Counted from the stretch's first letter, positions 5,867 to 39,034 are shown. The stretch: DNA of 64,000 bases from Streptantibioticus parmotrematis (GCF_019890615.1 NZ_JAINVZ010000004.1:62001-126000); one strand, 5' to 3'. Program-made: numbers and translations. Notes: generated from the letters alone by a model not told the origin.

Positions 5867-5888
5867 CCGCCCGACAGCCGAACGCCGC

Positions 5889-9826: not shown

Positions 9827-10074
9827 CTGGAGAACTCCTGGTGAATCATCGAGGCTGACTGGCACTCAGTCCGCAATGGTGTCCGCGAAGAATATGGGTG
9901 AGGCATGCACCGACCGCCGGTGCATGAATTCATTGGCGGCTCGCGTCACACGTCCACAGTTCTGATCGCGCATCTTCGAGATCACAACTAGACTTTTTCC
10001 ACAAGGGATTCGCGAGTGACCGGCCCACTACCGGGGCTGTCGCCACCTGCCATGTCACTGGTTGTGCGCTGAAT

Positions 10075-11934: not shown

Positions 11935-11937
11935 CAT

Positions 11938-12934
11938 TCCCCCATAGGTCACACCTGACCCGACGTTAAGTGGCGACGAAGCGGGTAAGGACCTCATCGC
12001 GCACCGGCGTGCACTGCCATGGTGGGCGAGCGTTGCGCCCCACTCCGCTCACGCATGAGCCGGACGTCAGCGAACGTCACATTCATGCAAAAAGGCCAGG
12101 GCAAGGCATCCGTCCCCCCGATCGACCGCGGCACACGAACGGAGACGCAGCCATTCCCGCCCTCGGTCGACGGTTCCGAAGCTTCACCAGCGGTGGAGCA
12201 GGAACCAGTGTCCAGCTTCGAAGAAGGTACACCTAGCCACCAGCCACGATGGTGGCAGGACTGCCGGCCGACCGAATCTCCCGTTGAGGATGCTTGATTC
12301 ACGGCTCGGAGGTCAAGCATCTTCTGTTGCGGCCCGAGGCCACTTGGCCGAATGTTTACAGCGTCGGCGCGCCATCGCGCGCCGACACCGGTAACACTGG
12401 ATTCTGGTCGCCAGGGCGCGCCTCGCACACTGGATCAAGGCACTCGGGCGATACCGCAGCAGGCCTGCTGACCTGCCGTTTCACGCTCGATTGCGGCAAC
12501 GCTGGCGCTCGCCCTCGATGGAACCGGCGAACCGGTGCTGACGCCCAGCGAGGGGAAGGGGACCGGCTCCGAGTCGAGCGGGCGCCGGATAATTGCTGTG
12601 GTCAAAGATAATGCTGGGAGCTAGACTCCAGCGACCTCGAACACCTCTCCGCAGGCCACGTGCCGAACGCCGAGGGGTGCAACGGGACTTGGGGGGAGTG
12701 TTACATTTTGCGGCGCCATCACACGGTCCCGCCTGGAGCTGCCTCAGCAGCTCGGCGGGAGCTCTCGCGTGACACCTATTGCGGTCACGAAACGCGGGCC
12801 GGTAGCAGGAACCATCACTGATCCCTTCGCTTGAGCAGGAATCGAAGGGCAAGGATGCGTCCCACGGTAAGTCCGTACATTGGCAGCGATGTCCGGATTG
12901 ACCTCTATAAGGAATTAACGGGGTAGAGATCGTC
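11938..12934. promoter_or_regulatory. Long divergent control region between the two biosynthetic operons
   Basis: About 1 kb with no convincing gene on either strand; frames present have poor codon bias. It must carry promoters for the minus-strand A-PCP group and the 26-kb plus-strand operon. A perfect 9-bp inverted repeat, GATGCTTGA (12289-12297) and TCAAGCATC (12313-12321), could be a regulator site or terminator. TTGACC at 12898-12903, close to the plus-strand start, resembles a -35 box, but no convincing -10 follows. No regulator gene was found in the cluster. Confidence 0.45.
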
Positions 12935-21648: not shown

Positions 21649-21965
21649 CGGAGCCGGTGGAGGACGTACGCCGGATCTGGAGCACGGTGCTGGCCACCGA
21701 GGTCCAGGATGTGGATGTCAACTTCTTCGATGCCGGGGGCCATTCGCTCCTCGTGATGGTCCTCCAGGAACACCTGGAGGAGCTTTTCGGCCGGGAGATC
21801 TCCATCGAGGATCTCTTCGAGGCACCCACCATCCGGGCCCAGGCCCATCTGCTCACCGGCAGTTCAGACCCGAAGCAGGAGCGGGACAGCGGTTTCGGCG
21901 CCCATTCCCGTTCCCGGCTGATCGGGCGCGGCAACGGCCGCGCCGCAGCGGAGGACCGGACATGA
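21645..21965 (+). CDS. Free-standing carrier protein between NRPS and PKS
   Basis: 106 residues starting MTEPVEDVRRIWSTVLATEV. The phosphopantetheine Ser is in FFDAGGHSLLVMVL (near 38). The C-terminal 35 residues are a charged tail with no fold seen. ATGA overlaps join it to the NRPS upstream and the KS-ACP-reductase downstream. It most likely accepts the peptide from the trailing C domain and hands it to the KS, or carries an amino acid loaded by the stand-alone A domain (inference). Confidence 0.88.
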   Translation: MTEPVEDVRRIWSTVLATEVQDVDVNFFDAGGHSLLVMVLQEHLEELFGREISIEDLFEAPTIRAQAHLLTGSSDPKQERDSGFGAHSRSRLIGRGNGRAAAEDRT

Positions 21966-24900
21966 GCAGGCCCACCGACATCGCAGTCATAGGTATCGGT
22001 TGTCGCTTTCCCGACGGGCCCGACGTGGCGACCTTCTGGGACAACCTGATGGCGGGCGTCGTCTCGACGCGCCAGCAGTCCGAGGAACGTCTGAGGGCCG
22101 CCGGTCTGTCCACGGCGCAGCTGACGCATCCGGCATTCGTGCCAGTCGCCGCCACGGTGCCGGACGTGGAGATGTTCGCCGCTGAGTTCTTCGGGTACTC
22201 GCCGGCCGAGGCGGAAAGCATCGACCCGAGCCAGCGGATCTTCCTCGAAGTGTGCTGGGAGGCCCTGGAGTCCTCCGGCCACGCGCCGACCGGATCCGGT
22301 GGACCCGTGGTGGGTGTGTTCGCCAGCGGAGGCCCCAGCCCGTACACCGTCGCGCTCCAGGCCGCGAAGCTGAGGGAGGGCGGCCTCGCCTCCGTCGTCG
22401 ACGACCTGGATCTCACACTCGGTGGCACGGCCGACTTCATGGCCTCGCGCGTCGCCTACAAACTGGGGTTGCGCGGGCCTTCGGTGGGTGTGCAGACGGC
22501 TTGTTCGTCCTCCCTGACCGGCGTGCACTACGCGGTGCTGAGCCTGTTGTCCGGCGAGTGCGACCTCGCGGTTGCCGGCGGTGCGGCGGTCAGCGATCCC
22601 CTGGTCGGATACACCTACACGCCCGGCGGCGTGATGTCCGAGGACGGATACTGCCGCTCGTTCGAGGCACGTTCCACCGGCACCGCCGCGGGCGCAGGGG
22701 CTGGAGCCGTTGTGCTGCGTCGCCTCACCGATGCCCTGGCTGACGGTGACCCGGTCCTCGCCGTCGTGCGGGGCAGCGCGGTCGGTAATGACGGGGCCCT
22801 GCGAACGGGCTTCACCGCACCGAGTGCCAAGGGACTGGCGGGGGTGGTGGCCGGAGCGCTGACGGTGGCCGAAGCACCACCCCACACCGTGCGGTACGTC
22901 GAGGCCCATGGATCGGGTACTCAGCTGGGGGACAGCCTCGAACTCCGCGGCCTCACCGCCGGGTTTCGTATCGCCGGTGACGAACTGGGCACACCGCGGC
23001 GGGGCAGCGGCGACTGCGCTTTGGCCTCAGTGAAGGCCAACATCGGCCACGCCGGCTGGGCCGCCGGGATCGCCGGATTCATCAAGGCCGTGCACGTCGC
23101 GCACACGGGTACGGTGCCCCCGCACCCCTCCTTCGAACATCCTCGTGACCCCGGAGTGCTGGCGGACAGCCCCTTCTTCGTCCCCACCGAGCCGGTGAAG
23201 ATGACGGAGACGGACGACTGGCACGTGGTGGTCAATTCCATGGGGCTCGGTGGCACAAACGCCACCGTGGTGCTCGCCCCACCGCCCGCTCCGACCCGGC
23301 CTTCCGCTGAACCGGTGGATGTGGTCCGGCTCGTTCTGTCGGCCCGCAACCGGACCGAGCTGGACGCCCTGTCCCGAGCCGTGGCAGAGCGCCTGGACGC
23401 CGGCGCGCCCGTGGGCGACGTGGCGCACACCCTACGGGTGGGGCGCCGCGCCTTCCCCGAAAGGCGCGTGGTGACTGCGGCTCCGAACCAGATGGCGGCG
23501 GCTCTTCGAATGCCGCGGCCACCGCACGTACGCACCGCCAGGATCGAACCGCGCCGGGTCCTTCTCGTCGCACCCGAACCCGGGGGGAGCATCCCCGCAG
23601 AGCTCCTGGACCACCTGGTACGGGCCTTCCGCGGGCGAGCCGAGGTCGTCGCGTCAGCACCCGGCCAGCCGCCGACGGACGCGTACTTGCTCCGGCTGAC
23701 GCGCGGCACCGCAGGAGCCGGCCTTGTACCGCATTTCGAGGGCCGGGTCCCGTCGGTCCAGCAAGCCTGGGACGAGGCCTTCACCACCGCGTGGCTCAAC
23801 GGCGCCGATGTCGACTGGGAATATCTCGCCCGAGACGGCCGCGGACGCCGACTGGCCCTGCCTACGTACCCCTATCAGCGGCGCCGGTACTGGGCACTCG
23901 ACCATGTGTCCCTCCCGGAGACGGCCTCCGTCGACGGCCCGCTTCGCAAGACGTCCGCGACCAGCCGCCCCGAGGCGGGCGCTGACCCGGTGGAGGAAAC
24001 CCTCCTCAACATCTGGGCGGAGTTGTTCGGCAGACCAGATGTCGGCCTCGACGACGAATTCGGCACGATGGGGGGAACCTCACTGCTGTCGGTGCGCATG
24101 GGGCTCGAGGTGCACGCTCGGCTGGGCGTGCTGGTCAACCTGCACCGTGCGGGCGGAAGCCGGGCCACGGTCCGCAGGCTCGCGGAGATCGTCCGGGCCG
24201 CGAACGCTGCGGAGCCGACGGCGGGCTCCGACGACGAGACCGCAGACGGGCAGGGGGCCATCGTCGACGCCGACCTCACCCTCCCGCTGGGTGAGACTTC
24301 GGCGCACAGCACGACGGGCTCTGGCGTTCTGCTCACCGGAGCCACCGGCTTCCTGGGGAGCTTCCTCCTGCACCAGTTGCTGACTCGGACCGACCGCAGG
24401 GTGTACTGCCTGGTCCGCGCCGACAGCGAAGAGGACGCCCTCCGGCGGCTCAGTGACGCCGCGGCGTTCTACGCACTGCCCGCTCCCGACCTGGGACGAG
24501 TACGTGTGGTGGTCGGTGACTTGCGCGATGTCGCGAACGTCTGTTCCGGCTATCGCGATGGTGAACTCGCCACTCAGGTAGGCCACTTGCTGCACTGCGC
24601 CGCCCGGGTCGTCTTCACCGAGCCGTACAGCGAGCTGCGCGACGACAACGTGCTGCCCACGGTGGGACTGGTGCGCTGGGCACGGGCGAATGGCATACGC
24701 GAGTTCGGGTTCGTCTCCTCCCTGGCGGCGACCGGCCCCGCGCTGGGAACGAACGGCCGGACCCTGGAAAGCCGGGAGCAACCGCTCGACCCCGCACAAG
24801 GCGGCTACGGAGTCGGCAAGTGGGTCTGCGAGCGCCTCCTGGCACGGGCCGAGTCCGAAGGGATGCGGGTGAGGATCTTCCGTCCCGGACTGATCCTCGG

Positions 24901-25438
24901 TTCCACCACCACGGGGGCCTGCAACCCCAAGGACATGATGTGGCGCATGCTGGCGGCCGGAACCGCGGTGGGCGCACACCCGTTGGACGACCGGCCCATG
25001 CCGATGGCTCCGGTGGATCTGGTGTCCCAGGCCGTCGTGGACCTTCTCTTCGCACCCGGAGCGGCCGGACGGGCCTTCCATCTGGTGGCACGCGAAGGGG
25101 TCGGCGCGCAGCGCCTGTTCGCCCTGCTCGCGGCGGCCGGACTTCCCACCGAGCCGTTGAGCCGGGAGGACTGGCTCAGTGCGGTGGCTGCCCGGGCCCG
25201 CACGGGCGACAACCACGTCCTGACGAGCATGGCCCTCTACGACCTCGCCGGACACGAGGGTGATGCCACTTCAGTCGAGGCCGAGGCGTGGGGCGCGTGG
25301 CTGGCCGAGGCCGGGCACGACGCCGCCCCGACCGGGGAGTCGCTCCGGGCGGCGCTCTGCCACCTCGCCGGCAAGGACCCGGCCTACCTGGAACTGCTCG
25401 GCGCCGACGCCACGTCCGGCACCGACCGAGACGATTGA
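21962..25438 (+). CDS. AT-less polyketide synthase KS-ACP-thioester reductase
   Basis: 1158 residues. KS (about 1-430) has VQTACSSSLTG (Cys near 179), EAHGSGT and NIGHAGWAAG. A linker of about 210 residues ends LPTYPYQRRRYWAL, the usual post-AT motif, but no AT active site precedes it. The ACP Ser is in FGTMGGTSLLSVRM (near 705). The terminal reductase (about 785-1150) has VLLTGATGFLGSF for NADPH and GGYGVGKWVCERLL with the YxxxK pair. Release should therefore be reductive, giving an aldehyde or, after a second reduction, an alcohol, and this protein is probably the last assembly station. There is no KR, DH or MT. The extender is probably supplied by the hydroxymalonyl-ACP genes that follow. 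Confidence 0.9.
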   Translation: MSRPTDIAVIGIGCRFPDGPDVATFWDNLMAGVVSTRQQSEERLRAAGLSTAQLTHPAFVPVAATVPDVEMFAAEFFGYSPAEAESIDPSQRIFLEVCWEALESSGHAPTGSGGPVVGVFASGGPSPYTVALQAAKLREGGLASVVDDLDLTLGGTADFMASRVAYKLGLRGPSVGVQTACSSSLTGVHYAVLSLLSGECDLAVAGGAAVSDPLVGYTYTPGGVMSEDGYCRSFEARSTGTAAGAGAGAVVLRRLTDALADGDPVLAVVRGSAVGNDGALRTGFTAPSAKGLAGVVAGALTVAEAPPHTVRYVEAHGSGTQLGDSLELRGLTAGFRIAGDELGTPRRGSGDCALASVKANIGHAGWAAGIAGFIKAVHVAHTGTVPPHPSFEHPRDPGVLADSPFFVPTEPVKMTETDDWHVVVNSMGLGGTNATVVLAPPPAPTRPSAEPVDVVRLVLSARNRTELDALSRAVAERLDAGAPVGDVAHTLRVGRRAFPERRVVTAAPNQMAAALRMPRPPHVRTARIEPRRVLLVAPEPGGSIPAELLDHLVRAFRGRAEVVASAPGQPPTDAYLLRLTRGTAGAGLVPHFEGRVPSVQQAWDEAFTTAWLNGADVDWEYLARDGRGRRLALPTYPYQRRRYWALDHVSLPETASVDGPLRKTSATSRPEAGADPVEETLLNIWAELFGRPDVGLDDEFGTMGGTSLLSVRMGLEVHARLGVLVNLHRAGGSRATVRRLAEIVRAANAAEPTAGSDDETADGQGAIVDADLTLPLGETSAHSTTGSGVLLTGATGFLGSFLLHQLLTRTDRRVYCLVRADSEEDALRRLSDAAAFYALPAPDLGRVRVVVGDLRDVANVCSGYRDGELATQVGHLLHCAARVVFTEPYSELRDDNVLPTVGLVRWARANGIREFGFVSSLAATGPALGTNGRTLESREQPLDPAQGGYGVGKWVCERLLARAESEGMRVRIFRPGLILGSTTTGACNPKDMMWRMLAAGTAVGAHPLDDRPMPMAPVDLVSQAVVDLLFAPGAAGRAFHLVAREGVGAQRLFALLAAAGLPTEPLSREDWLSAVAARARTGDNHVLTSMALYDLAGHEGDATSVEAEAWGAWLAEAGHDAAPTGESLRAALCHLAGKDPAYLELLGADATSGTDRDD

Positions 25439-25445
25439 GGGAACT

Positions 25446-26300
25446 GTGGAAGAACAGGACAAGAGCCTGGTCGCCGTGCTGGGAGCGGGAGTCATGGGTG
25501 TGGGCATAGCGGCCCTCGCCCTCGGTCACGGCGTTCCCGTGGTGCTCGTGGACGTCGACGATCGTGTTCTGGAGAAGGCCGCCCGGGACGTGCCACTTCG
25601 CATCCGCCAAGGGCAGTTGCTCGGCAAGCTCCCGCGGACCACGGATCTTCCGCCTCTGACAACCTCCACCTCACTGGAGGCTGCGGCTGCCGCAACCGTG
25701 GTGATCGAGGCGGTCGTGGAAATGCCGGAGGTGAAGGCGAAGGTCCTGCGCGCGGTGTCCGAATCCGTGGCCCCCGGGACTCCTTTGGTGAGCAACACGT
25801 CCGGCATCCCCATCGACGAGCTCGCCGGACACACCCTCCGTCCGTCGGACGTCCTCGGTGCCCACTTCATGAATCCGCCGTACCTGATCCGTACCGTCGA
25901 GGTGATCCGGGGACCGCGCACGACCGACGAGGCACTGGACCCGGCGCTTCGGCTCCTCACCTCCCTCGATCGCGAATCCATCGTGGTGGGCGACGGGGCG
26001 GGCTTCGTCATCAATCGTGTCCTCCAGCGGATGATCAACGAGTCGGCGCGAATAGTGCAGGAGGGGATCGCCACCCACGAAGAGGTGGACGCGCTCTTCC
26101 AGGGTTGCCTCGGCCACAGGACCGGACCGCTCGCCACAGCGGACCTGATCGGCCTGGACAACGTCGTCGACAGCCTGCGCGTGCTGCACACACGCACCGG
26201 AGACGCGGGCTTCGATCCTTGCGAACTGCTGCTCAGCAAGGTCGGTACCGGTGACTTCGGCCGCAAGACGGGCCGCGGTTTCTACGCCTACGAATCCTGA
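25446..26300 (+). CDS. 3-hydroxyacyl-CoA/ACP dehydrogenase of the hydroxymalonyl-ACP set
   Basis: 284 residues. The Rossmann motif AVLGAGVMGVGIAALALGHG opens the protein. SNTSGIPIDELA near 118 and GAHFMNPPYLIRTVEVI near 138 are typical of 3-hydroxyacyl-CoA dehydrogenases, and the C-terminal helical domain ends GRKTGRGFYAY. In FkbK/ZmaG-type pathways this enzyme oxidises glyceryl-ACP at C3. GTG start 8 bases after the PKS stop. It works with the ACP, acyl-CoA dehydrogenase and FkbH domain encoded just downstream. Confidence 0.88.
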   Translation: MEEQDKSLVAVLGAGVMGVGIAALALGHGVPVVLVDVDDRVLEKAARDVPLRIRQGQLLGKLPRTTDLPPLTTSTSLEAAAAATVVIEAVVEMPEVKAKVLRAVSESVAPGTPLVSNTSGIPIDELAGHTLRPSDVLGAHFMNPPYLIRTVEVIRGPRTTDEALDPALRLLTSLDRESIVVGDGAGFVINRVLQRMINESARIVQEGIATHEEVDALFQGCLGHRTGPLATADLIGLDNVVDSLRVLHTRTGDAGFDPCELLLSKVGTGDFGRKTGRGFYAYES

Positions 26301-26352: not shown

Positions 26353-26643
26353 ATGACCCCTACCTCTTCCATCCAGCCGACGGCCACTGAGATCGAAACC
26401 GAACTCCTCGCCTTCCTACACGGCCGCGGGAAGGTAGAGGTGGCACCCGACACCGACCTGTTCGCCTCGGGCGCCGTCACGTCCCTGTTCTCCCTGGAGT
26501 TGGTAACGCATGTCGAGGCGGCGTACGGCGTCGCCGTGGTGGGCGACGAGCTCCGGATGGACAACTTCCGCAGTGTGCGGGCCATGGTGGGACTCATCGA
26601 ACGGCTCCGCGCGACCTGTGAGACGGAACCGTCCCATGGGTGA
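26353..26643 (+). CDS. Acyl carrier protein for hydroxymalonyl extender units
   Basis: 96 residues. The Ser in FASGAVTSLFSLELVTHVEA (near 43) is the pantetheine site; the SLFSLELV context is the variant seen in carriers of methoxy- and hydroxymalonyl pathways rather than the GxDS of PKS carriers. It would receive a glyceryl group from 1,3-bisphosphoglycerate via the FkbH domain and be oxidised on the carrier. It lies between the two dehydrogenase genes. Confidence 0.9.
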   Translation: MTPTSSIQPTATEIETELLAFLHGRGKVEVAPDTDLFASGAVTSLFSLELVTHVEAAYGVAVVGDELRMDNFRSVRAMVGLIERLRATCETEPSHG

Positions 26644-27745
26644 ATCCGTCGACCGGGCGGCCGCGCTGGTCACGGAACTGGCTGCCGGCCAAGCCGAGGA
26701 GTGGGACGAGCGCGCCGAGCTGCCGCGCGAACTCATCCGGGAGTTGGGCGCCAAAGGCGCGCTCTGTGCCGACGTCCCCGAGTCGTTCGGCGGACTCGGG
26801 CTCGACAGCCAGGACAACGGTCGTCTGATCGCTGCCACCGGAGAGACGTGCAGCTCGCTGCGGAGCGTGATGACGTCCCAGGGCATCGCTGCGTGGGCGG
26901 TCTCCCGCTTCGGCTCTGCCGCGCAAAAAGCCGAGTTCCTGCCGCGACTCACGTCCGGTGAGACGGCCGGGGTCGCGTTCAGCGAGCCCGCTGCGGGGAG
27001 CGACCTGGCGGCGATGTCCACCGAGATCGTCCAAGACGGTGACACGATCGTCGTCACCGGTTCGAAGTCCTGGGTGACCGGCGCCCATTACGCGTCACTG
27101 CTCGTGGTCTTCGGCAGGTTCGGCAACGGCGCCGCCATGGTCGTCGTCCCCACCGACGCCCCCGGGGTGAGCGTCGAACGCATTCCTTCTCCACTCGGAT
27201 GCCGCGCAGCAGGACACGCCTCTGTCCGGATGGACCGGGTACGAGTGCCCGCCCACCACCTGCTCGGTGGGGCGGGTATGCCCATCATGATGCTGGTGTC
27301 GTCACCGCTGACGCACGGCCGGATCTCCGTGGCCTGGGGTTGCGTGGGCATCCTGCGCGCCTGCCTGCGAGAGGTCGTACGCCACAGTTCCCAGCGGGTC
27401 GCCTTCGGCAGTCCACTGTCGCAACATCAATTGGTCCAGCGACACATCGCGGAGCTCTACGCCGGCGAGCGCACGGCTACGTACGCGTGCGAGCACGCAA
27501 GCCTGGAGTGGGACACCAAGAAACCGCGGTACATGGCTACCGCCGTACTGGCCAAGCATGTGGCCGCCGAGCAGGCGGCGCGGGGCGCGGCGAGCGCCGT
27601 TCAGGTGCTGGCCTCCGCCGGCGCCCGCTCCTCCCACGTGGTGGCACGCGCCTACCGGGACGCGAAGTTGATGGAAATCATCGAAGGAAGCAGCGAGATC
27701 AGCCAGGTGCTGCTGGCAGACGAAGCGATGACGGTGTGGGCATGA
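26636..27745 (+). CDS. Acyl-CoA dehydrogenase-like flavoprotein of the hydroxymalonyl-ACP set
   Basis: 369 residues, the usual size. VAFSEPAAGSDLAAM near 112 binds FAD and substrate. The region SWVTGAHYASLLVVFGR follows the middle beta domain, and IIEGSSEISQVLLA near the end is the C-terminal FAD contact. In FkbI/ZmaE-type systems it oxidises the ACP-bound C3 aldehyde or C2-C3 unit to the malonyl acid. It overlaps the ACP by 8 bases and the KAS III-like gene by ATGA. Confidence 0.88.
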   Translation: MGESVDRAAALVTELAAGQAEEWDERAELPRELIRELGAKGALCADVPESFGGLGLDSQDNGRLIAATGETCSSLRSVMTSQGIAAWAVSRFGSAAQKAEFLPRLTSGETAGVAFSEPAAGSDLAAMSTEIVQDGDTIVVTGSKSWVTGAHYASLLVVFGRFGNGAAMVVVPTDAPGVSVERIPSPLGCRAAGHASVRMDRVRVPAHHLLGGAGMPIMMLVSSPLTHGRISVAWGCVGILRACLREVVRHSSQRVAFGSPLSQHQLVQRHIAELYAGERTATYACEHASLEWDTKKPRYMATAVLAKHVAAEQAARGAASAVQVLASAGARSSHVVARAYRDAKLMEIIEGSSEISQVLLADEAMTVWA

Positions 27746-28728
27746 CGATCACGAACGGGGGCGGCGGGGAGATCGGCCTGGGCGCCATGTATTGCCTGCT
27801 GCCGGACGAACGCGTCAAGGTGGGGGATCTTCCCGAGTGGGGCCTGCTCAACCGGGAGGAGACCGGCTTCGCGCTCGGGTCGGGCATCGAGACCGTGAGT
27901 GTCTTCGACGACCGCGCCACCGCGGGCCTGGCCGCAGAGGCTGTCCAGGGGCTGGGGCAGGCTGTGCATCCTGCTCCCGACCTGCTCATACTGGTCGGCG
28001 CCCGTTCACCGGACGTGCTGCTCGGCTCCGATGTCGGCCAGGTACAGGCCGAGGCGGGGCTGACCGGTGCGTTCTCCTTCACCCTTGACGGACTGGGCTG
28101 CACCGGATCCAGCGCGGCGTGGGCCCTGGCCCGCGACCTGATCGTGGCCGATCCGGGACGCACCAGCGCGGTCATCGCCCATGCGAGTCGGCCGACCGGC
28201 GCCGACCGGGTGCGGTACCCCGTCACCGTGATCGGTGACGGGGCCTACGCCATGACGATGGTGCGCGGGGGACGGCCGGTCCTGCGAGCGCATCGGATGG
28301 AGAGTGACGGCACCTTCCATGATCTCTTCCGCGTCGACTACAAGTCCGCGCCGTGGTACGAGTGGCGCGAGGAATGCCAGTCCGCCGACCGCTACCGGTT
28401 CGACCTGGCCATGCACAGCAGGCAGCGTCTGTCCCGGTTGGTCGATGGCGTTCTGGCAGACGCAGGACTGGCCAAGTCTGATGTCGCCGCGACCTTGATG
28501 CAGAACGTCACCGCCGGCGCCTTCGACTTCTACGAGAGCCTGCTCGGCCTGCCCATCCACTCTGTCTGCCGACGTCACCTCGCCGAATACGGCCACCTGG
28601 GGGCCATGGACGTCGTGCTCAACCTTCAGCGCGTACTCGCCGAGGGCGGTCTGCAGCGCGGCGATCACGTCCTCGTCCTGAACAACAGTCCGGTTGCCGC
28701 TTGGGCGGCCACGCTCTGGGAGATCTGA
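27742..28728 (+). CDS. KAS III-like protein with altered catalytic residues
   Basis: 328 residues. The thiolase fold is visible from DGLGCTGSSAAWALARDL (Cys near 121). In the second half the usual PHQAN His segment reads LMQNVTAG, so His appears replaced by Gln. The GNTSAA Asn segment reads YGHLGAMD, so Asn appears replaced by His. A Cys without the His/Asn pair would not be expected to decarboxylate malonyl groups, but KAS III relatives can act as acyltransferases between carriers. It lies inside the hydroxymalonyl block, so it may move that unit or another acyl group to the AT-less PKS proteins (inference). Alignment by eye should be confirmed. Confidence 0.75.
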   Translation: MTITNGGGGEIGLGAMYCLLPDERVKVGDLPEWGLLNREETGFALGSGIETVSVFDDRATAGLAAEAVQGLGQAVHPAPDLLILVGARSPDVLLGSDVGQVQAEAGLTGAFSFTLDGLGCTGSSAAWALARDLIVADPGRTSAVIAHASRPTGADRVRYPVTVIGDGAYAMTMVRGGRPVLRAHRMESDGTFHDLFRVDYKSAPWYEWREECQSADRYRFDLAMHSRQRLSRLVDGVLADAGLAKSDVAATLMQNVTAGAFDFYESLLGLPIHSVCRRHLAEYGHLGAMDVVLNLQRVLAEGGLQRGDHVLVLNNSPVAAWAATLWEI

Positions 28729-28730
28729 TC

Positions 28731-30794
28731 ATGTCGCACAGCACAGCCGGGCAGAACGCCAACGGAGTCGGCCTCCCCCTGGTCAAGTGCCTGGTATGGG
28801 ACCTGGACAACACGCTATGGCGCGGAACGCTGTTGGAGGACGAGGAAGTCCGGCTGCCGGACGAGATACGACGCACCGTGGAGGAGCTCGACGCCCGCGG
28901 CATCCTGCAGTCCGTCGCCAGCCGTAACGACCACGATCTCGCATGGGAGCGCCTGGAGAGACTCGGTATCGCGGAGTACTTCGTTCTGCCCCAGATCAAC
29001 TGGGGCAGGAAGTCCGACTCCGTTCGCGCCATAGCGGAACAGCTCAAGTTCGCGACGTCCGCCCTTGCCTTCATCGACGACCAGCCCACAGAACGGGCCG
29101 AGGTCGAACACGTGCTGCCCGACGTGCGGACGTACGAAGCCGGGCGGGCCCCGCTGTTGACGGGGCTCCCCGAATTCAGCCCGGCCCGGGTGACACAGGA
29201 CGCCGCCAACCGCCGTTCCATGTACCAGGCGGGATTCCGCCGCGAGCGAGCCGAGGCCGAACACGGAGGACTGGACGACGAGTTCCTCTGCTCCCTCGAT
29301 CTGCGGCTGACCATCCAGCAGGCGAGCGAAGACCAACTGGCCCGGGTTGAGGAACTGACCCTGCGGACCAGCCAGATGAACGCCACGGGAGTCCACTACT
29401 CGGAAGGCGACCTGCGAGCGCTGCTCGACGACCCGGCCCACGACGTACTCGTGGCCGGCCTCACGGACCGCTTCGGGGACCACGGCGCGATTGGCGTGGT
29501 GCTCCTGGAGCGCCTGACCAGCCACTGGCACGTCAAGCTTCTGGCCACATCCTGCCGCGTCGTCTCTTTCGGCACGGGCGCCACCATCCTGCGCTGGCTC
29601 AAGGCACAGGCTCGCGCGGCCGGGGTACACCTGACGGCCGACTTCCGCCCCACGGACCGCAACCGGATCATGGAGGTGGCCTACCGGTTCGCCGGGTTCA
29701 GCCAACAGCCCTGCGTCGAGTGCGCGGACCTGGGTGAGGGGGGCCCGGGCGTCCAGCGACTGCACTGCGTCCCGGCAAGCGAGGGGATCTCAGAAACGAT
29801 GCGGGTCATCGCGCCGACGCTGGGCGCCCCCGCCGCCGAGTCCGTGCACGAATGCTACGGGTACCGCGTGGAGTGCTCCTTCGACAGCGCCGCGCGACCT
29901 GTCGTGGAGGGGTTCTTCGGACCGGCAGTGGACCGGCAAGGAGCTGTCGGCGAACCAGTGCGGACGATACGTCTGAGCATCGCGATCCAAGACGGACCGA
30001 TGGTGGTGCCGGTGAACCCGCCGCACAATCTGGAGGTCATGACGAGCGACCCCATCGTGATCGACACGGCGAGTTCGCGATGCGTCTTCGACCCGTCGGC
30101 GGGGGCGGGGACGATCACTCTGGCAAGGGCGGACATCGACGACTCCCAGGTGTGGGGCCGCTGGATGCTGGAACGCCTCTTTCTCTATCTCATCTGCCGC
30201 TCGCCGCGCAGTTACCCGTTGCATGCCGGAGCCATCGAGGTCGATGGCCGCGTGGCCGTGCTGACGGCCGCTGCCGGCGTCGGCAAGTCGACGTTCACCT
30301 ACTGGGCCCTGCACCGTGGTGCCAAGCTGGTCGGGGAGGACATCCTCGCCAGGAACATGGACGAGCCGGGCGCGGTGGTGTGGGGCTATCCACGTGCCCT
30401 CTACGTCACGCCCGAGATGATCGCCCGAGCCGATCTCCTTCAGGACGCGCAGGCGACACCGATCGAGGGCGGAGCCAAGAGCCGTGTCACTGTGCCCCGT
30501 TCGCTGGAGGACCGGCTGCTGTCCCGGGCCCGTCCCTCCTGCATGGTCTTCCTGGTGCGCGGCGACGGTCGTCAGGAGGTCAGGGAGCTGAGCGCGAGCG
30601 AGGCTCTCGACCGATGCCGAGAGGACTACGCCACCGCGAAGAGCGAGGCTGACCTCAAGGCGGTGGAGGACGACCTGCGCGGTCTCCTCTCGGGAGCCCC
30701 CGTTTGGGAGTTCGAGGTCTCCGGTGACCTCGACGAAAGCTACGACAGGCTGCGCGCGGCACTGGCACGGCTTCCCGTGCCCTCCACCGACTGA
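28731..30794 (+). CDS. FkbH-type HAD glyceryltransferase/phosphatase fused to an HprK-like kinase domain
   Basis: 687 residues. The N-terminal 350 are FkbH-like: VWDLDNTLWRGTLLEDE (near 23) is HAD motif I with DxDxT, SRNDHD gives motif II, and FIDDQPTERAEVE gives motif IV. This domain takes D-1,3-bisphosphoglycerate, dephosphorylates it and loads glyceryl on the ACP. From about residue 365 the sequence becomes HprK-like: ECYGYRVECSF, VWGRWMLERL, HAGAIEVDGR, a Walker A at AAGVGKSTFTYW (near 514) and LVGEDILAR after it. The second half is homologous to the separate protein at 36271. HprK domains phosphorylate Ser/Thr hydroxyls. The fusion links extender supply to phosphorylation. I know of no characterised protein with this layout. 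Confidence 0.82.
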   Translation: MSHSTAGQNANGVGLPLVKCLVWDLDNTLWRGTLLEDEEVRLPDEIRRTVEELDARGILQSVASRNDHDLAWERLERLGIAEYFVLPQINWGRKSDSVRAIAEQLKFATSALAFIDDQPTERAEVEHVLPDVRTYEAGRAPLLTGLPEFSPARVTQDAANRRSMYQAGFRRERAEAEHGGLDDEFLCSLDLRLTIQQASEDQLARVEELTLRTSQMNATGVHYSEGDLRALLDDPAHDVLVAGLTDRFGDHGAIGVVLLERLTSHWHVKLLATSCRVVSFGTGATILRWLKAQARAAGVHLTADFRPTDRNRIMEVAYRFAGFSQQPCVECADLGEGGPGVQRLHCVPASEGISETMRVIAPTLGAPAAESVHECYGYRVECSFDSAARPVVEGFFGPAVDRQGAVGEPVRTIRLSIAIQDGPMVVPVNPPHNLEVMTSDPIVIDTASSRCVFDPSAGAGTITLARADIDDSQVWGRWMLERLFLYLICRSPRSYPLHAGAIEVDGRVAVLTAAAGVGKSTFTYWALHRGAKLVGEDILARNMDEPGAVVWGYPRALYVTPEMIARADLLQDAQATPIEGGAKSRVTVPRSLEDRLLSRARPSCMVFLVRGDGRQEVRELSASEALDRCREDYATAKSEADLKAVEDDLRGLLSGAPVWEFEVSGDLDESYDRLRAALARLPVPSTD

Positions 30795-30839
30795 CCGGAC
30801 GGTATCCCGTTCGCCCTTGAGGACCCATTGAGGAAGGTC

Positions 30840-32393
30840 ATGCAACAGCTCAAGCACTCCACGTCGCTGTACGCGGTCTTCGCGGACCAGGTGACGCGAC
30901 GCCCGGACGCCGTGGCCATCACGGACGGCCCGCTCGAGATCAGCTACCGGCAACTGGAGAACGCCGCCAGGGCGTACCGCCTCCGCCTTGCGGAGAACGG
31001 TGTTCGACCGGGCGACCTGGTGGGGATCAGCCTCGCAAAGGGCTGGGAAGTCGTCGCGGCGATCCTCGCCGTACTCAGCCAGGGCTGCGGATACGTCCCA
31101 CTCGATCCGGCCTACCCCGCTGACCGGCTCTCCTTCATGGTGGAGAACAGCCGTGTCCGGGTGGTCATCGCCCACCCGGACAGCTCGTTCCTGCCGCAGG
31201 ACACCGTTCTGGTCACACGCGCCGCGGATGACGAGATCGCCACCGAAGCTCCTCCGGAGCGGCCGCACGGCACGCCCGCGTACGTGATCTACACCTCGGG
31301 CTCGACCGGAGTGCCCAAGGGCGTGACGGTCGAGGAGGCCTCCGTACTGGAGCTCTTCCGATCCTGCTCCGGAGGACTGTTCACCTTCGGCCCGGAGGAC
31401 GTCTGGACGCTGTACTTCAGCTACAGCTTCGATTTCTCCGTATGGGAGATCTGGGGGGCGCTGCTGTTCGGCGGGCGCCTCGTCGTCGTGCCGGCACACA
31501 TCACGGCGCGCCCGGCGACGTTCCTGGACTTTCTCGCCCGCGAGCGGGTGACCGTGCTCAATACGGTGCCCAGTTTCTTCAAGTACCTTCCCAGGGCGTA
31601 CGAACGCAAGCCCGTCCCGCTGGCCCTGCGCTACATCGTCTTCGGAGGCGAGCAGCTGGACCGGGTGTCCGTGCGCGACTGGATGCGGTTGCGACCCGGC
31701 GCCGAGACCCTCGTCAACATGTACGGGATCACCGAGACAACGGTACACACCACGTTCGGTGCCCTCACCGCGGAGCGCGTGGCGTCCGACAGCGGCGGCA
31801 CGTGGATCGGCGAGCCACTACCGCACCAGCGTGTGGTGCTGCTCGCTCCGGACGGGACCGAAGTGCCGCACGGGGAACCGGGTGAGGCATACGTATCGGG
31901 GCTCGCTCTGGCCCGCGGCTACATGGGGAGACCGGGCCTGACGGCGGAGCGCTTCCTCGAGATGACGCTCGATGGCGACTCGACGCCGCGTGTGTGGTAC
32001 CGCACCGGTGACTTGCTCCGTCGGCTGGACGACGGAACGTACGAATACCTGTGCCGCAACGATCGGCAGATCAGCCTTCGCGGCTTCCGGATCGAGCTCG
32101 GCGAGGTCGAAGCGGTCCTGCGTGAGGAGGTCTCCGTACTCGACGCGGTGGCCGTGACGGAGGAGACGGCGGGCGGTGAGTCCCTGCTCATCGTCTACGT
32201 GACCCTTGCCGACGACCGGACGCCGGCAGAGGAACACGCGGTACGACTGCGGGCAGCGTGTCAGGACCAGTTGCCCGCCCACATGGTGCCCAACCGTGTC
32301 GTCGTGGTCTCGAAGATGCCCCTCGCCCCCTCGGGAAAACTCGACCGGGCCCGGCTCTCCACCGATATGGACCTGCGGATGGTGCAGAGATGA
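30840..32393 (+). CDS. Stand-alone NRPS adenylation domain, threonine-type pocket
   Basis: 517 residues ending at SGKLDRARLSTD, so there is no carrier domain. A3 is VIYTSGSTGVPKGVTVEEAS and A5 is NMYGITETTVHTT. The pocket read by eye is D-F-W-N-V-G-M-V-H-K, one conservative change from the Thr code D-F-W-N-I-G-M-V-H-K. It must load a carrier in trans; the free carriers at 21645 and 5889 are candidates. Start: ATG 30840 sits close behind AGGAAGG; TTG 30828 behind GAGG is an alternative. Its TGA overlaps the CYTH start. It is the second Thr-type A domain in the cluster. Confidence 0.87.
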   Translation: MQQLKHSTSLYAVFADQVTRRPDAVAITDGPLEISYRQLENAARAYRLRLAENGVRPGDLVGISLAKGWEVVAAILAVLSQGCGYVPLDPAYPADRLSFMVENSRVRVVIAHPDSSFLPQDTVLVTRAADDEIATEAPPERPHGTPAYVIYTSGSTGVPKGVTVEEASVLELFRSCSGGLFTFGPEDVWTLYFSYSFDFSVWEIWGALLFGGRLVVVPAHITARPATFLDFLARERVTVLNTVPSFFKYLPRAYERKPVPLALRYIVFGGEQLDRVSVRDWMRLRPGAETLVNMYGITETTVHTTFGALTAERVASDSGGTWIGEPLPHQRVVLLAPDGTEVPHGEPGEAYVSGLALARGYMGRPGLTAERFLEMTLDGDSTPRVWYRTGDLLRRLDDGTYEYLCRNDRQISLRGFRIELGEVEAVLREEVSVLDAVAVTEETAGGESLLIVYVTLADDRTPAEEHAVRLRAACQDQLPAHMVPNRVVVVSKMPLAPSGKLDRARLSTDMDLRMVQR

Positions 32394-32905
32394 CAACGGA
32401 GATCGAACGCAAGTTCACCGTGGCCGAACACTGGCAGGTACCCGACGATGCCGTGGGCCTGCACTTGCGCCAGGCCTATCTGACGCCACCCGGTGCCCCC
32501 GTGGAATTCCGGGTGCGGGCCGCGGGCAACGCCCGGGCACTGACGGCGAAGAGCTTTGACAGCGCGTCCGGCGCGATGGTGCGCCAAGAGGTCGAGTTCG
32601 CCATCGACCCCGCTGTCTTCGAACAACTCTGGGAGTTGGCCAGACGTGACTCACTGAGCAAGTTCCGGTGGTCCGTTCCCCTGGGTGATGAACACCTGGC
32701 CTCGGTCGACGAGTACGACGGGCCGCTGTCGGGACTACGCGTGGTGGAGGTGGAGTTCGGCAGTGTCGAGGAGGCGAGAGACTTCCGTCCTCCGAGCTGG
32801 TTCGGCGAGGAAGTGACCGGAGACCCCGCGTGGAGCAATCGCGAACTGGCCGCGTCGGCACAGCAGTACGAGACGAAGGAGAGTGCCGATGAACCGGCAC
32901 ATTGA
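32390..32905 (+). CDS. CYTH-domain triphosphate tunnel protein
   Basis: 171 residues starting MTTEIERKFTV, the EIERK being the ExExK hallmark of CYTH/triphosphate-tunnel enzymes. Further basic and acidic strands follow (HLRQAYL, VEFRVRA, KSFDSASGAMVRQEVEF, VVEVEFGSVEEARDF), matching the beta-barrel alternation. Family members hydrolyse triphosphates (thiamine triphosphate, tripolyphosphate) or cyclise ATP. Flanked by an A domain (ATGA overlap) and a tyrosine-phosphatase-like gene (17-base overlap), it is clearly part of the operon. A triphosphorylated or pyrophosphorylated intermediate is a possible substrate (inference). Length fits short bacterial CYTH proteins. Confidence 0.85.
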   Translation: MTTEIERKFTVAEHWQVPDDAVGLHLRQAYLTPPGAPVEFRVRAAGNARALTAKSFDSASGAMVRQEVEFAIDPAVFEQLWELARRDSLSKFRWSVPLGDEHLASVDEYDGPLSGLRVVEVEFGSVEEARDFRPPSWFGEEVTGDPAWSNRELAASAQQYETKESADEPAH

Positions 32906-33626
32906 GTTCGACCGCCTGCACAACTTCCGTGACCTGGGCGGCTACCGCACCGTTGACGGGCGTGCGGTGGCCTGGCAGACCCTCTATCGCGCCGACTCGC
33001 TCGGCAAACTGCAGGGTGCCGACTGGGAGAGGTTCCTCGGGCTGGGCATCGGAACCGTCATCGATCTGCGGTACCCCTGGGAAATCGAGGTCAAGGGCCG
33101 CGTGCCCGAAGCGGAACGGTTCCACTACGTCAATCTGAGCATCGAGCACCGGCCTTACGACCAGGCATCGATCGATCCCGCCCTCGACCCGTGGCGCTAC
33201 CTCGCCGATCGTTTCGCCGAGGTTACCGAGGACGGGGCCGACGAGATCCGCCAAGTACTTGAGCACATCGCCGAAGCACCCGGGCCGGTGGTCTACCACT
33301 GCACATCCGGCAAAGACCGGACAGGGCTGATCAGCGCGCTCGTGCTGACCCTGCTCGGCGTTTCCCGGCAGGACATCCTCGCCGACTTCGCCTTGACCGA
33401 ACTGGCCACCGCGCGTCTCGTCGTCGATTGGCACACCGCCAACCCCGATCGTGAACTGAGGTGGCCCGGCTACGGGCGGGCGCCCGCAGTGATCATGGAG
33501 ATGGTCCTGGAGGATCTGGAAACCCGGCACGGCTCCGTTCACGGCTACCTCAAGGACCGGGTCGGCCTGTCGGACACCACAGCCGACCGGCTGCGCGCCC
33601 GGCTGCTCACAGACGGAATCGGCTGA
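32889..33626 (+). CDS. Tyrosine-phosphatase-like phosphatase (Y_phosphatase3 family)
   Basis: 245 residues. NFRDLGGYRTVDGR (near 11) is the family's N-terminal motif. The P-loop HCTSGKDRTGL (Cys near 138) is the CX5R phosphatase signature with the Lys-Asp seen in lipid/protein phosphatases such as LipA and MptpB. IDLRYPWEIE near 56 supports the fold. It would remove phosphate from a phospho-ester. It is translated with the CYTH gene upstream and lies 2 bases before the aminopeptidase gene. In a cluster with two kinases it may release a phosphate mask from the product or edit the wrong phosphorylation. Confidence 0.88.
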   Translation: MNRHIEFDRLHNFRDLGGYRTVDGRAVAWQTLYRADSLGKLQGADWERFLGLGIGTVIDLRYPWEIEVKGRVPEAERFHYVNLSIEHRPYDQASIDPALDPWRYLADRFAEVTEDGADEIRQVLEHIAEAPGPVVYHCTSGKDRTGLISALVLTLLGVSRQDILADFALTELATARLVVDWHTANPDRELRWPGYGRAPAVIMEMVLEDLETRHGSVHGYLKDRVGLSDTTADRLRARLLTDGIG

Positions 33627-33628
33627 AC

Positions 33629-36244
<2,616 letters not shown>

Positions 36245-36270
36245 CGAGCCACGAACGAACAGGACACGAC

Positions 36271-37212
36271 ATGCGAGAGACGTTCCATGAGTTCTACGGA
36301 TACCGAATCGCCTGCACGGCACCGGCAGACGCCGAGCCGGTCGTCCGGCGCCTCTTCGGCCCCCCCTCGGCACCGGCGCCGCATGCGCCGTGGTCGGGCG
36401 CGGACACGATCCGGTTGTCCTTCGAGATCACCGACGTGGACCACGATGCCGTGCCTCCGCCCTACTTCCCGCCCCATTGGGACACGCGTGACGAGATTGT
36501 CCTGGACACCCGCAGCTCCACCGCCACGGTCTCCCTCGCCGCGCGCGCGGTGCACGTGAGGCTCGCCCGCTCCGATCTGGGCAACCCCATCGTGTGGGGA
36601 CGATGGCTGGTCGAGAAGGCGTTCCTCATAATGACATTGCGCTCCAATCGTCACTACGGCCTGCACGCGGGCGCGCTCGAGGTGGAGGGCCGGGGGGCGC
36701 TGGTCACCGCGGACAGCGGTGTCGGCAAGTCGACGTTCACTGCTTGGGGGCTCTTCCAGGGCGCCACCTTCATCGGCGAGGACGCCATGATGCGTCACAT
36801 CGAAGACCCTGAAGACCGGTTCTGGGGATACCCCCGCTGCGGGTACCTCGACCCCGCCGTGGCCAAGACCCGGCCCGAGCTCGCGGACGCGCCGGCCGCC
36901 CCGGTGCCGGCCCGGGACAAGTGCCGCCTGGAGTGGCCCGCGTCCTTCGAGGAACGTCTGGTGACCGCTGTGCGGCCTCACGCGCTCTTGATTCTCACCC
37001 GCGACCACCAGGAAATCCGTCCGGTCGGCGTCGATGAGGTCGTCGAGCTGTGCCGGAGTGACTTCGAGGCGGGCAAGCTCCGCGCCGAAGACCGAGCCCT
37101 GGCTGAGGACGATCTGCGCGCCCGGCTCGCGAGTATGGCCTTGCTGGAGTTCGGCCTCTCCAGTGACCTGAAGGCCAACTACGCACGTTTGGCAACCACC
37201 CTGCAGGCCTGA
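36271..37212 (+). CDS. HprK-like P-loop kinase
   Basis: 313 residues, homologous along its length to the C-terminal half of the FkbH fusion at 28731. Shared landmarks are EFYGYRIACT at the start, VWGRWLVEKAF, HAGALEVEGRG, the Walker A TADSGVGKSTFTAW (near 148) and FIGEDAMMR. HprK/P phosphorylates a Ser in HPr; relatives in lasso-peptide clusters phosphorylate peptide hydroxyls. The substrate here may be a Thr, hydroxymalonyl or other hydroxyl group on a carrier or on the final product. It follows the aminopeptidase by 26 bases and precedes the NDP-kinase-like gene by 48. Confidence 0.82.
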   Translation: MRETFHEFYGYRIACTAPADAEPVVRRLFGPPSAPAPHAPWSGADTIRLSFEITDVDHDAVPPPYFPPHWDTRDEIVLDTRSSTATVSLAARAVHVRLARSDLGNPIVWGRWLVEKAFLIMTLRSNRHYGLHAGALEVEGRGALVTADSGVGKSTFTAWGLFQGATFIGEDAMMRHIEDPEDRFWGYPRCGYLDPAVAKTRPELADAPAAPVPARDKCRLEWPASFEERLVTAVRPHALLILTRDHQEIRPVGVDEVVELCRSDFEAGKLRAEDRALAEDDLRARLASMALLEFGLSSDLKANYARLATTLQA

Positions 37213-37260
37213 CCAGTGGGCCCGAAGACCCACTTCTGAGAACGAGAGAGCGAATACATC

Positions 37261-38211
37261 ATGGGCGCCACGAACTGGAGCGCACTGACCCGTATGCCCG
37301 TCAAGGCGTACCACTACGAACTCGACACATGCTTCCGCGAGGGACAAGACGAGGTCCAGGAAGCTTTCGGTGACCGCCAAGAGGAGGTCCTGCACCGCTC
37401 CGCGCTGATGCTGGTCAAACCCGACGGCATGGCAACGGGCAAGTTGGGGGTCATCCGCGATTTTCTCGGCACCCACAACTTCTCAATCATCGGTGCGGAA
37501 CTCTTCCGGTTCAACCGGCACACGGGGCGCGAACTGTGGCGACACCAGCACACGCTGGCCTCGCTGGACCGACTCGCCGTCAACGACATCGTGTTGCAGG
37601 CAGGCCCCACTCTGCTGCTGCTCCTGCGCAGATTCGGCGACCATCCTGAGCCCGCTACCGTGCACCTCAGCTCCCTCAAGGGCAAAGCAGACATGTCCCA
37701 GCAGACCCCCGACAGTCTGCGCGGCGTTCTCCAGCGGCCGAACCGGCTGTGCAGCATGATCCACTGCGCTGACGAACCAGCGGACCTGGTCCGCGAGTTG
37801 AACTTGCTGATGGATCCCGCACCGCGGCACCGCCTGCTCGGTCGCCTGCGGGAAGGAGTCTCCTCCCCGGCCGACGAGGACCTGCTCGACCATGTGCTCC
37901 ACTCCGGCGAGTTCGGAAACGTGACCCTCGACCGGGACGGCGCCGTCCGGCGCATCCGCCACACGGTCCGGGAACGAGCGACCGAACACCCCGACCTGGC
38001 GGCCGCAGCTGGCCGGATAGAAGCGTGGCTGGAAGGGACGGAGCGGGGTGAACTGCTGCCTTGGCGGGAGTTCACCCGCGTACTGAAGTCTCTCGACATC
38101 AAGGTGGACGTCTGGGACATGGCCATCGTCGGCAGCAGCCACATCGTCGAGGACGAGCCCGGTGCCATCAAGGTGATCGGCAATCCGCGGTCCGGATCGT
38201 GGCTCGCGTGA
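37261..38211 (+). CDS. NDP-kinase-like protein with extra C-terminal domain
   Basis: 316 residues. The N-terminal 170 follow the nucleoside diphosphate kinase fold: SALMLVKPDG (near 45), LGTHNFSIIGAELFRF, and an IHCADEPADL segment (near 167) matching the NAVHGSDS region with its phospho-accepting His. It ends in an additional 130 residues (LLDHVLHSGEFGNVTLDRDG and onward) with no family recognised. Canonical NDPKs are about 140 residues, so this is a specialised relative. With the two HprK-like kinases it may extend or transfer phosphates on a pathway intermediate. The active-site surroundings differ enough that activity is not assured. Confidence 0.68.
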   Translation: MGATNWSALTRMPVKAYHYELDTCFREGQDEVQEAFGDRQEEVLHRSALMLVKPDGMATGKLGVIRDFLGTHNFSIIGAELFRFNRHTGRELWRHQHTLASLDRLAVNDIVLQAGPTLLLLLRRFGDHPEPATVHLSSLKGKADMSQQTPDSLRGVLQRPNRLCSMIHCADEPADLVRELNLLMDPAPRHRLLGRLREGVSSPADEDLLDHVLHSGEFGNVTLDRDGAVRRIRHTVRERATEHPDLAAAAGRIEAWLEGTERGELLPWREFTRVLKSLDIKVDVWDMAIVGSSHIVEDEPGAIKVIGNPRSGSWLA

Positions 38212-38293
38212 CACCGTCCAGACCCCGCAGCCCCGCCCCGCGCACCGTCTCCGCCGGTGCGGCGCGGTGCCCACGCGGCAGAAGGGGGGAGCG

Positions 38294-39034
38294 ATGATGG
38301 ACCAGCCGTCCTGGTGGTCCCACCTCCGACGGCGGTCGGCTCTCCCCCGGGCACGTCTCCTCGTTGTGCCGCACTCGGGAGGGGGGCCCAACCGCTATCT
38401 CCGGCTCGTCGGCAATGTCCCTGACGACGTGGAGGTACTGGGCTTCACCCTGCCCGGCCGTGAACGTCGGTTGGCCGAGCCTCCCGGTGCCACCCTCGAC
38501 GAAGTGGTCACCAGCCTGTCGACGATTCCCGGGGCCGTGCCGCCCACCGTCCTTCTCGGGCACAGCCTGGGCGCCACCCTCGCCCTCCACCTCGCACACG
38601 CCCTCGGCGACCACTGTGCCGGTCTCGTCGTGTCGGGGCAGACGCCGCATCGCCAGGACTGGCTGTCCGAACGCTCCACCGACGAAGAGATCGTCCGTCT
38701 TCTCGAACGCGGCGGAGACCTGCCCTCCGAGTTCTTCAAGGAGGGAGCGTGGCGGACGGCCTTGTTGAACAACATGCGTGCCGACCTCGCACTGGGCGGC
38801 GAAGCCGTCGCCCGCGGCACGGCCATCCGCATCGACGCGCCCGTCACCGTACTGTGCGGCACGGAGGACCGCTTGATCGACATGGAGGCGCTGGCCGACT
38901 GGGGCGGGCACACCACGACGCGGTGCGAGGTGGAGCTCGTTCCCGGTGGTCATTTCGCCCTCTTCGATCCAGCGAACCGGCCGCGTTTCGAAGACGCGAT
39001 CGGACGACACCTTGATCGGGTCCTGAGTTCGTGA
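38294..39034 (+). CDS. Type II thioesterase
   Basis: 246 residues. VPHSGGGPNRYLRLVGNVPD opens the family pattern, the nucleophile is in LLGHSLGATLALH (Ser near 93), and PGGHFALFD near the end carries the catalytic His. It edits blocked or misprimed carriers on the NRPS/PKS proteins. The start ATG follows GGGGGAGCG; a second ATG is 3 bases on. It is the last gene of the plus-strand operon, followed by a hairpin. Unlike the thioesterase at 5141 it keeps Ser. Confidence 0.9.
   Translation: MMDQPSWWSHLRRRSALPRARLLVVPHSGGGPNRYLRLVGNVPDDVEVLGFTLPGRERRLAEPPGATLDEVVTSLSTIPGAVPPTVLLGHSLGATLALHLAHALGDHCAGLVVSGQTPHRQDWLSERSTDEEIVRLLERGGDLPSEFFKEGAWRTALLNNMRADLALGGEAVARGTAIRIDAPVTVLCGTEDRLIDMEALADWGGHTTTRCEVELVPGGHFALFDPANRPRFEDAIGRHLDRVLSS

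What the first reader, a model, noticed from the sequence alone, without database searches (positions are those of the whole stretch)
28731..38211. A set of phosphate-handling enzymes built into an NRPS/PKS operon
Seen: two HprK-like kinases (C-terminal half of 28731-30794, and 36271-37212), a CYTH protein with EIERK (32390), a CX5R phosphatase with HCTSGKDRTG (32889), an NDP-kinase-like protein keeping the phospho-His (37261), and an M1 aminopeptidase, all co-directional with gaps of 0-50 bases or overlaps. Known: HprK relatives phosphorylate hydroxyls, CYTH enzymes cut triphosphates, CX5R enzymes remove phosphate. Inferred: a hydroxyl on a carrier-bound residue or on the product is phosphorylated, perhaps to more than one phosphate, and later unmasked. 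This would be a phosphate-protected, peptidase-trimmed hybrid peptide. I do not know this combination from a described pathway.
Basis: partly seen in the sequence, partly recalled or inferred. Interest (0 to 1): 0.88.

Follow-up and report, generated by a model that had tools for sequence, protein, structure and literature searches.

The report
HprK-like kinases in hydroxymalonyl NRPS-PKS cluster
A soil-bacterium gene cluster that builds a small peptide-polyketide also carries two kinases, one fused to the enzyme that starts an oxygen-bearing building block, suggesting that the cell adds phosphate to that building block or to the product made from it, while the peptidase next door looks like a mutated spare copy of the product's own target.

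Summary
FkbH-HprK, A, CYTH, CX5R phosphatase, M1 peptidase, HprK2, NDK-like and thioesterase genes run co-directionally in a real NRPS/PKS cluster, conserved gene for gene in three named Streptomyces genomes. The "phosphate set" is, however, two layers. (1) A kernel shared with Lentzea and Micromonospora: A-T, C-A-T-C, AT-less KS-ACP-reductase, FkbH/I/J/K, KASIII, A and one or two HprK-like kinases. (2) Additions seen so far only in the Streptomycetaceae version: CYTH, phosphatase, NDK-like, peptidase. The HprKs have a confident PEPCK/HprK fold, keep the P-loop and most known catalytic residues, and one is fused to FkbH. I infer that they phosphorylate the hydroxyl brought in by the hydroxymalonyl unit, on the carrier or soon after release. 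Related kernels without HprK carry methyltransferases, a hint that phosphate takes the place of methyl. The peptidase is better read as a resistant target copy: it is nested among housekeeping PepN, three further copies exist in the genome, and it is changed at otherwise invariant positions beside GAMEN and HEXXH. No described HprK-PKS/NRPS pathway was found in the library searched. Product, substrate and phosphate fate are untested.

The parts
7460..9865 (-). second AT-less KS-ACP module
   Evidence: ketoacyl-synt and PP-binding, no acyltransferase match; conserved 71-75% in Streptomyces clusters
10075..11997 (-). A-T with Thr-type code DFWSVGMVHK
   Evidence: conserved
12935..15169 (+). flavoprotein related to L-aspartate N-hydroxylase (8cp2)
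   Evidence: identity of 8CP2 from PMC10404684; 70% in S. capoamus
15224..17050 (+). A-T loading protein, code DAFFLGVTFK (branched-chain type by own knowledge)
17062..21648 (+). C-A-T-C NRPS protein
21956..25438 (+). AT-less KS-ACP-thioester reductase
   Evidence: TIGR01746 237.8 bits, above its cut-off
25452..26300 (+). 3-hydroxyacyl-CoA dehydrogenase-like (FkbK equivalent)
   Evidence: 3HCDH domains
26353..26643 (+). small ACP (FkbJ equivalent)
   Evidence: conserved 80% in S. capoamus
26630..27745 (+). acyl-CoA dehydrogenase-like (FkbI equivalent)
   Evidence: start chosen by conservation
27742..28728 (+). KASIII-like protein, proposed unit transferase
   Evidence: ACP_syn_III_C; 67-86% in all HprK kernels
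28731..30794 (+). FkbH fused to HprK-like kinase 1 (kinase from about 29838)
   Evidence: TIGR01686 341 bits; 41% to HprK2; fusion conserved
30843..32393 (+). stand-alone A domain, Thr code DFWNVGMVHK
32390..32905 (+). CYTH protein with EIERK
   Evidence: 3typ/2fbl relatives, E about 1e-27
32883..33626 (+). CX5R phosphatase (Y_phosphatase3)
   Evidence: 214 bits; HCTSGKDRTG
33629..36244 (+). M1 aminopeptidase N, proposed resistant target copy
   Evidence: TIGR02412 1047 bits; paralogues; tree and substitutions
36271..37212 (+). HprK-like kinase 2
   Evidence: pLDDT 91 model, HprK/PEPCK fold
37261..38211 (+). NDK-like protein with N- and C-terminal extensions
   Evidence: PF00334 38 bits; 78-81% in Streptomyces clusters
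38267..39034 (+). thioesterase
   Evidence: PF00975; end of conserved operon

Best explanation
The two HprK-like proteins are ATP-dependent kinases built into a hydroxymalonyl-using NRPS-PKS line. FkbH, FkbK, FkbJ and FkbI make hydroxymalonyl-ACP, and the KASIII-like protein hands the unit to the AT-less KS-ACP modules. The HprKs phosphorylate the hydroxyl that this unit brings, on the carrier or just after release, where other clusters methylate it. The reductase releases an aldehyde or alcohol. In the Streptomycetaceae version the CX5R phosphatase, CYTH and NDK-like proteins edit or remove the phosphate(s), and the M1 enzyme is a resistant copy of the target aminopeptidase. Shown: gene content, fusion, conservation, fold and motif. 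Inferred: substrate, timing, number of phosphates, KASIII role and peptidase role.
For: HprK1 is fused to FkbH in all four Streptomycetaceae clusters. Every HprK locus found lies in the FkbH/I/J/K-KASIII kernel, across Streptomycetaceae, Lentzea and Micromonospora. Kinase fold: Z 14.3 to HPr kinase, about 16 to PEPCK; P-loop, His and Asp kept. No acyltransferase domain was found in the core proteins scanned. Related kernels without HprK carry methyltransferases absent from HprK kernels. PepN: three paralogues, nested clade, changes at positions invariant in 32 other enzymes.
Against: No substrate has been tested. The methyltransferase comparison rests on three clusters, in two of which the enzyme is of another type and 3-5 kb away. 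HprK1 and HprK2 could act on Thr or on a different hydroxyl. HprK lies away from FkbH in Lentzea and Micromonospora. The PepN changes would also fit a peptidase recruited for biosynthesis.
Confidence: 0.42

Rival explanations
1. Self-resistance cycle: the kinases phosphorylate the finished product inside the cell to silence it, and the phosphatase, with CYTH, restores activity at or after export, as proposed for the amicoumacin kinase and phosphatase and shown on the kinase side for corramycin and capreomycin.
For: Kinase and phosphatase sit in one operon. Precedents: ComG inactivates corramycin (PMC10996006), Cph phosphorylates capreomycin (PMC9854587), and amicoumacin clusters may hold a putative kinase AmiN and phosphatase AmiO (PMC5055758).
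Against: Lentzea and Micromonospora keep HprK without the phosphatase nearby. HprK1 is fused to a precursor-making enzyme. No export signal was examined.
Confidence: 0.25
2. The kinases phosphorylate a carrier-bound amino acid hydroxyl (Thr from the stand-alone A domain), giving a phosphothreonyl residue or, by loss of phosphate, a dehydro residue.
For: The stand-alone A and the second A-T have Thr-type codes in the window and in the relatives read. Lasso-peptide HprK relatives act on Ser (PMC8498205, PMC10368454).
Against: In Lentzea and Micromonospora the stand-alone A domain has a different code (DPFFIIVVAK, DPFFLIVVAK) although HprK is present, and no lyase was found.
Confidence: 0.2
3. 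The M1 peptidase is a biosynthetic enzyme that removes a protecting or leading residue from the product, not a resistance copy.
For: Zinc-site motifs and the catalytic Tyr region are intact. Active-site-near changes could alter specificity.
Against: It descends from a housekeeping aminopeptidase that is still present in the genome, and is absent from the other kernels read.
Confidence: 0.3
4. HprK-like proteins are ordinary regulators of carbon metabolism that happen to lie near the cluster.
For: Weak resemblance to HPr kinases.
Against: Below every HprK cut-off; only the two cluster copies in this genome; found in 2 of 395 family genomes and always in this kernel; fused to a biosynthetic enzyme.
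Confidence: 0.03

Closest known systems
Hydroxymalonyl/methoxymalonyl-ACP cassettes (FkbG-K of FK506; zwittermicin)
   Same: FkbH, FkbI, FkbJ and FkbK equivalents in one operon feeding a hybrid line
   Different: No FkbG found in the HprK kernels; modules lack an AT; KASIII-like protein and HprK-like kinases are present
Lasso peptide HprK-like kinases (PadeK, ThcoK, SyanK, BsfK)
   Same: HprK-related fold and motif; natural-product hydroxyl kinases in biosynthetic clusters, some polyphosphorylating
   Different: Those act on ribosomal precursor peptides; one Gly and one Asp of the BsfK motif differ here; here one kinase is fused to FkbH in an NRPS-PKS cluster
Kinase (and phosphatase) self-resistance in amicoumacin, corramycin and capreomycin clusters
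   Same: Kinase, and in amicoumacin a phosphatase, encoded within a peptide or hybrid cluster
   Different: ComG is of the aminoglycoside phosphotransferase type (PMC10996006), not HprK; here the kinase is also kept without a phosphatase
Target-copy self-resistance
   Same: Extra, altered copy of a housekeeping enzyme next to core biosynthetic genes
   Different: No example with aminopeptidase N is known to me; the target is untested

Membership tests
HPr kinase/phosphorylase (PF07475, TIGR00679) | family profile score above cut-off | tested here: not met
   18.4 bits against 33.3 and 18.7 against 240
HPr kinase/phosphorylase (PF07475, TIGR00679) | kinase core fold with P-loop | tested here: met
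   Z 14.3, rmsd 2.4 A over 131 residues to 1ko7; GVGKST in the alignment
HPr kinase/phosphorylase (PF07475, TIGR00679) | phosphorylates HPr on Ser | not testable with these tools
   needs enzyme assay
Lasso peptide HprK-like kinases | motif H-G-G-G-K-S-D-D | tested here: inconclusive
   six of eight identical, G to A and D to E (against PMC10368454; matched by eye)
Lasso peptide HprK-like kinases | lasso precursor, protease and cyclase in the cluster | tested here: not met
   core genes are NRPS/PKS
Hydroxymalonyl-ACP cassette | FkbH, FkbI, FkbJ, FkbK equivalents together | tested here: met
   order conserved
Methoxymalonyl-ACP cassette | FkbG-type O-methyltransferase | tested here: not met
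   no methyltransferase in the core proteins scanned; no relative of the three methyltransferases tried
CYTH / triphosphate tunnel enzymes | ExExK motif and family similarity | tested here: met
   EIERK; 100 bits to 3typ, though Pfam CYTH is below its cut-off (17.1 against 23.2)
Nucleoside diphosphate kinase (PF00334) | profile match and phospho-His | tested here: met
   38.2 bits against 27; His168 aligned with the active-site His
Nucleoside diphosphate kinase (PF00334) | conserved Asn three residues before the His | tested here: not met
   Ser165 in all four orthologues
Aminopeptidase N (TIGR02412) | profile match, GAMEN, HEXXH | tested here: met
   1047 bits against 591; motifs kept
Resistant target copy | duplicate of a housekeeping gene, nested in its tree, with altered conserved sites | tested here: met
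Resistant target copy | enzyme insensitive to the cluster's product | not testable with these tools
   needs product and both enzymes

The most novel reading that the evidence does not exclude
HprK1 phosphorylates hydroxymalonyl-ACP itself, making a phosphooxymalonyl-ACP extender unit, the phosphate counterpart of methoxymalonyl-ACP; a KASIII-like protein transfers it to AT-less modules, so that phosphate enters the chain during elongation.
Probability: 0.22. Interest if true: 0.87.

Novelty: new variant of a known kind. Interest (0 to 1): 0.62.

Why it matters
If right, HprK-family kinases, known from sugar regulation and lasso peptides, also phosphorylate assembly-line peptide-polyketides, and may create a phosphorylated extender unit. 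The kernel defines a searchable family in at least three actinobacterial families, with a natural comparison (HprK against methyltransferase versions), and the PepN copy suggests where to look for the product's target: M1 aminopeptidases.

Tried and rejected
NDK-like structure prediction failed (pLDDT 44 from a four-sequence alignment), so nothing is drawn from it. Treating all phosphate enzymes as one module was rejected after the Lentzea and Micromonospora comparison. HprK acting on Thr as a general rule was weakened because the stand-alone A code differs in the other genera. A link of HprK number to KS-module number was rejected (Lentzea: two HprKs, one KS-R seen). The terminal C of C-A-T-C was considered as an epimerase and rejected: it has the condensation motif HHLVTDGW. 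An enolase beside the NDK-like pair of G065 was considered as a clue and dropped, because enolase with Ppx/GppA looks like a housekeeping locus (own knowledge). A first PepN alignment read two paralogues on the wrong strand and was redone. Literature searches for HprK with PKS/NRPS, hydroxymalonyl or luciferase-like monooxygenase gave no described pathway. The promoter/terminator scan gave only chance-level hits.

Full report
WHAT IS THERE. The finding's genes are real. The conserved operon is longer than stated. A second Thr-type A-T and a second AT-less KS-ACP lie on the minus strand (10075, 7460).

CONSERVATION. In S. capoamus (G233 = L016) every gene from 12935 to 39034 is syntenic at 59-85% identity, and most of the genes from 2609 to 11997 follow downstream in another order. 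Among 395 genomes of the same family, HprK2 relatives occur only in the window's genome and this one. A scan of 84,980 species found six loci: three Streptomyces with the full block, and Lentzea aerocolonigenes, L. indica and Micromonospora arborensis with a reduced kernel. The scan uses short conserved patterns, so more distant relatives may be missed. The reduced kernel is A-T, C-A-T-C, KS-R, HCDH, FkbJ, FkbI, KASIII, FkbH, A, MFS, HprK, luciferase-like monooxygenase, flavin reductase and, in Lentzea, a second HprK (for L. indica the A-T and C-A-T-C were not read). CYTH, phosphatase and PepN gave no match in the stretches read, and the NDK-like protein none in those whole genomes. HprK therefore belongs to the wider kernel, while the other phosphate genes and PepN are, so far, additions of the Streptomycetaceae version.

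THE KINASES. HprK2 models at pLDDT 91. Its core matches HPr kinases (Z 14.3, 2.4 A over 131 residues), and the whole chain matches ATP-dependent PEPCK (Z about 16 over 266 residues). P-loop GVGKST, His132 and Asp171 are conserved, the Val of the P-loop varying; relative to the functional motif of BsfK (PMC10368454) one Gly is Ala and one Asp is Glu. The copies form two subtypes. The HprK1-type clade holds Lentzea and Streptomyces members (support 86/87), and the other Lentzea copy falls outside it, on the HprK2 side, so a pair of kinases may be old. HprK relatives in lasso clusters phosphorylate, and some polyphosphorylate, a Ser hydroxyl (PMC8498205).

WHY THE HYDROXYMALONYL HYDROXYL. Three facts point there. 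HprK1 is fused to FkbH in all four Streptomycetaceae clusters seen. HprK occurs with the FkbH/I/J/K-KASIII kernel in every locus found. Kernels of the same type without HprK (G147, G207: 66-71% identical to the HprK kernels over FkbI, KASIII and FkbH) carry a methyltransferase, of which no relative was found in the HprK kernels; in G322 an O-methyltransferase sits inside the cassette, between HCDH and FkbJ, like FkbG, which belongs to the methoxymalonyl-ACP genes of FK506 (PMC3551636). Limits: the G147/G207 methyltransferase is of another kind (24-31% local identity to that of G322) and 3-5 kb away, the G322 enzyme belongs to a broad O-methyltransferase family and its KS-R was not seen, and the sample is three. 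Thus 'phosphate in place of methyl' is a lead, not a demonstration. Timing (on the carrier, on the chain, after release) is open.

THE PEPTIDASE. The genome holds three other PepN-type proteins (62%, 53%, 43% identity). A tree of 36 sequences puts the four BGC copies in one clade (100/100) inside Streptomycetaceae PepN (97/99 for an enclosing set of 14), on a long branch. At positions identical in all 32 other enzymes the BGC copies have E265G and G275A, flanking GAMEN, A306S within HEXXH, and W359K. The catalytic motifs themselves are kept. This is what one expects of a resistant copy of the target; recruitment as a biosynthetic peptidase remains possible.

THE OTHER PHOSPHATE ENZYMES. The phosphatase has relatives in most related genomes (28 of 31) and CYTH in some (6 of 31). 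The NDK-like protein belongs to a family found in 27 of 395 family genomes. In one of them a tandem pair stands beside a relative of the 12935 flavoprotein; in two others it lies near a PPDK-like and nucleotidyltransferase-like pair. This suggests a recurring specialised role, not housekeeping. What it does here is unknown.

PRECEDENT. Kinases in peptide clusters that silence the product are known (corramycin ComG, PMC10996006; capreomycin Cph, PMC9854587), and amicoumacin clusters may hold a putative kinase and a phosphatase (PMC5055758). That makes a self-resistance cycle the main rival. The library searched held no paper that joins HprK to a PKS or NRPS pathway; most subscription papers are missing from it.

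VERDICT. Observation confirmed; interpretation partly supported. Most likely this is a phosphorylating variant of a hydroxymalonyl NRPS-PKS kernel, with a clade-specific phosphate-editing and self-resistance layer.

Noticed in passing
12935-15169: Flavoprotein related to the L-aspartate N-hydroxylase 8CP2 (E 4.7e-33), conserved at the head of the operon in the Streptomyces clusters; suggests an N-oxidised part of the product. No nitrosuccinate lyase was recognised in the genes scanned.
   Followed up: partly
L096 7384-14562: In another genome (G065) a tandem pair of NDK-like proteins stands with a ClpX-like protein, an amidase, a relative of the 12935 flavoprotein and an M28 peptidase: perhaps a different, unstudied cluster.
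   Followed up: partly
L098 1582-8622; L100 6756-14932: NDK-like proteins near a PPDK/PEP-utiliser-like protein and a nucleotidyltransferase-like protein, in L100 also an AfsA-type protein.
   Followed up: no
27742-28728: KASIII-like protein keeps a Cys (LGCTGSS) but seems to lack the usual His-containing HQAN motif (MQNV by eye), as might suit an acyltransferase rather than a synthase.
   Followed up: no
39109-44538: Minus-strand A-T-C NRPS, an alpha/beta hydrolase and a DDE transposase lie just beyond the operon; the NRPS has no syntenic counterpart in S. capoamus.
   Followed up: partly
L015 15841-18760: A sugar-type ABC transporter (binding protein, permease, ATPase) lies between the A-T and KS-ACP genes in this version; not seen at that place in the window.
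   Followed up: no
5824-6999: 391-aa protein without Pfam or NCBIfam match, conserved at 55-58% beside a thioesterase-domain protein (4697-5866) in the Streptomyces clusters.
   Followed up: no
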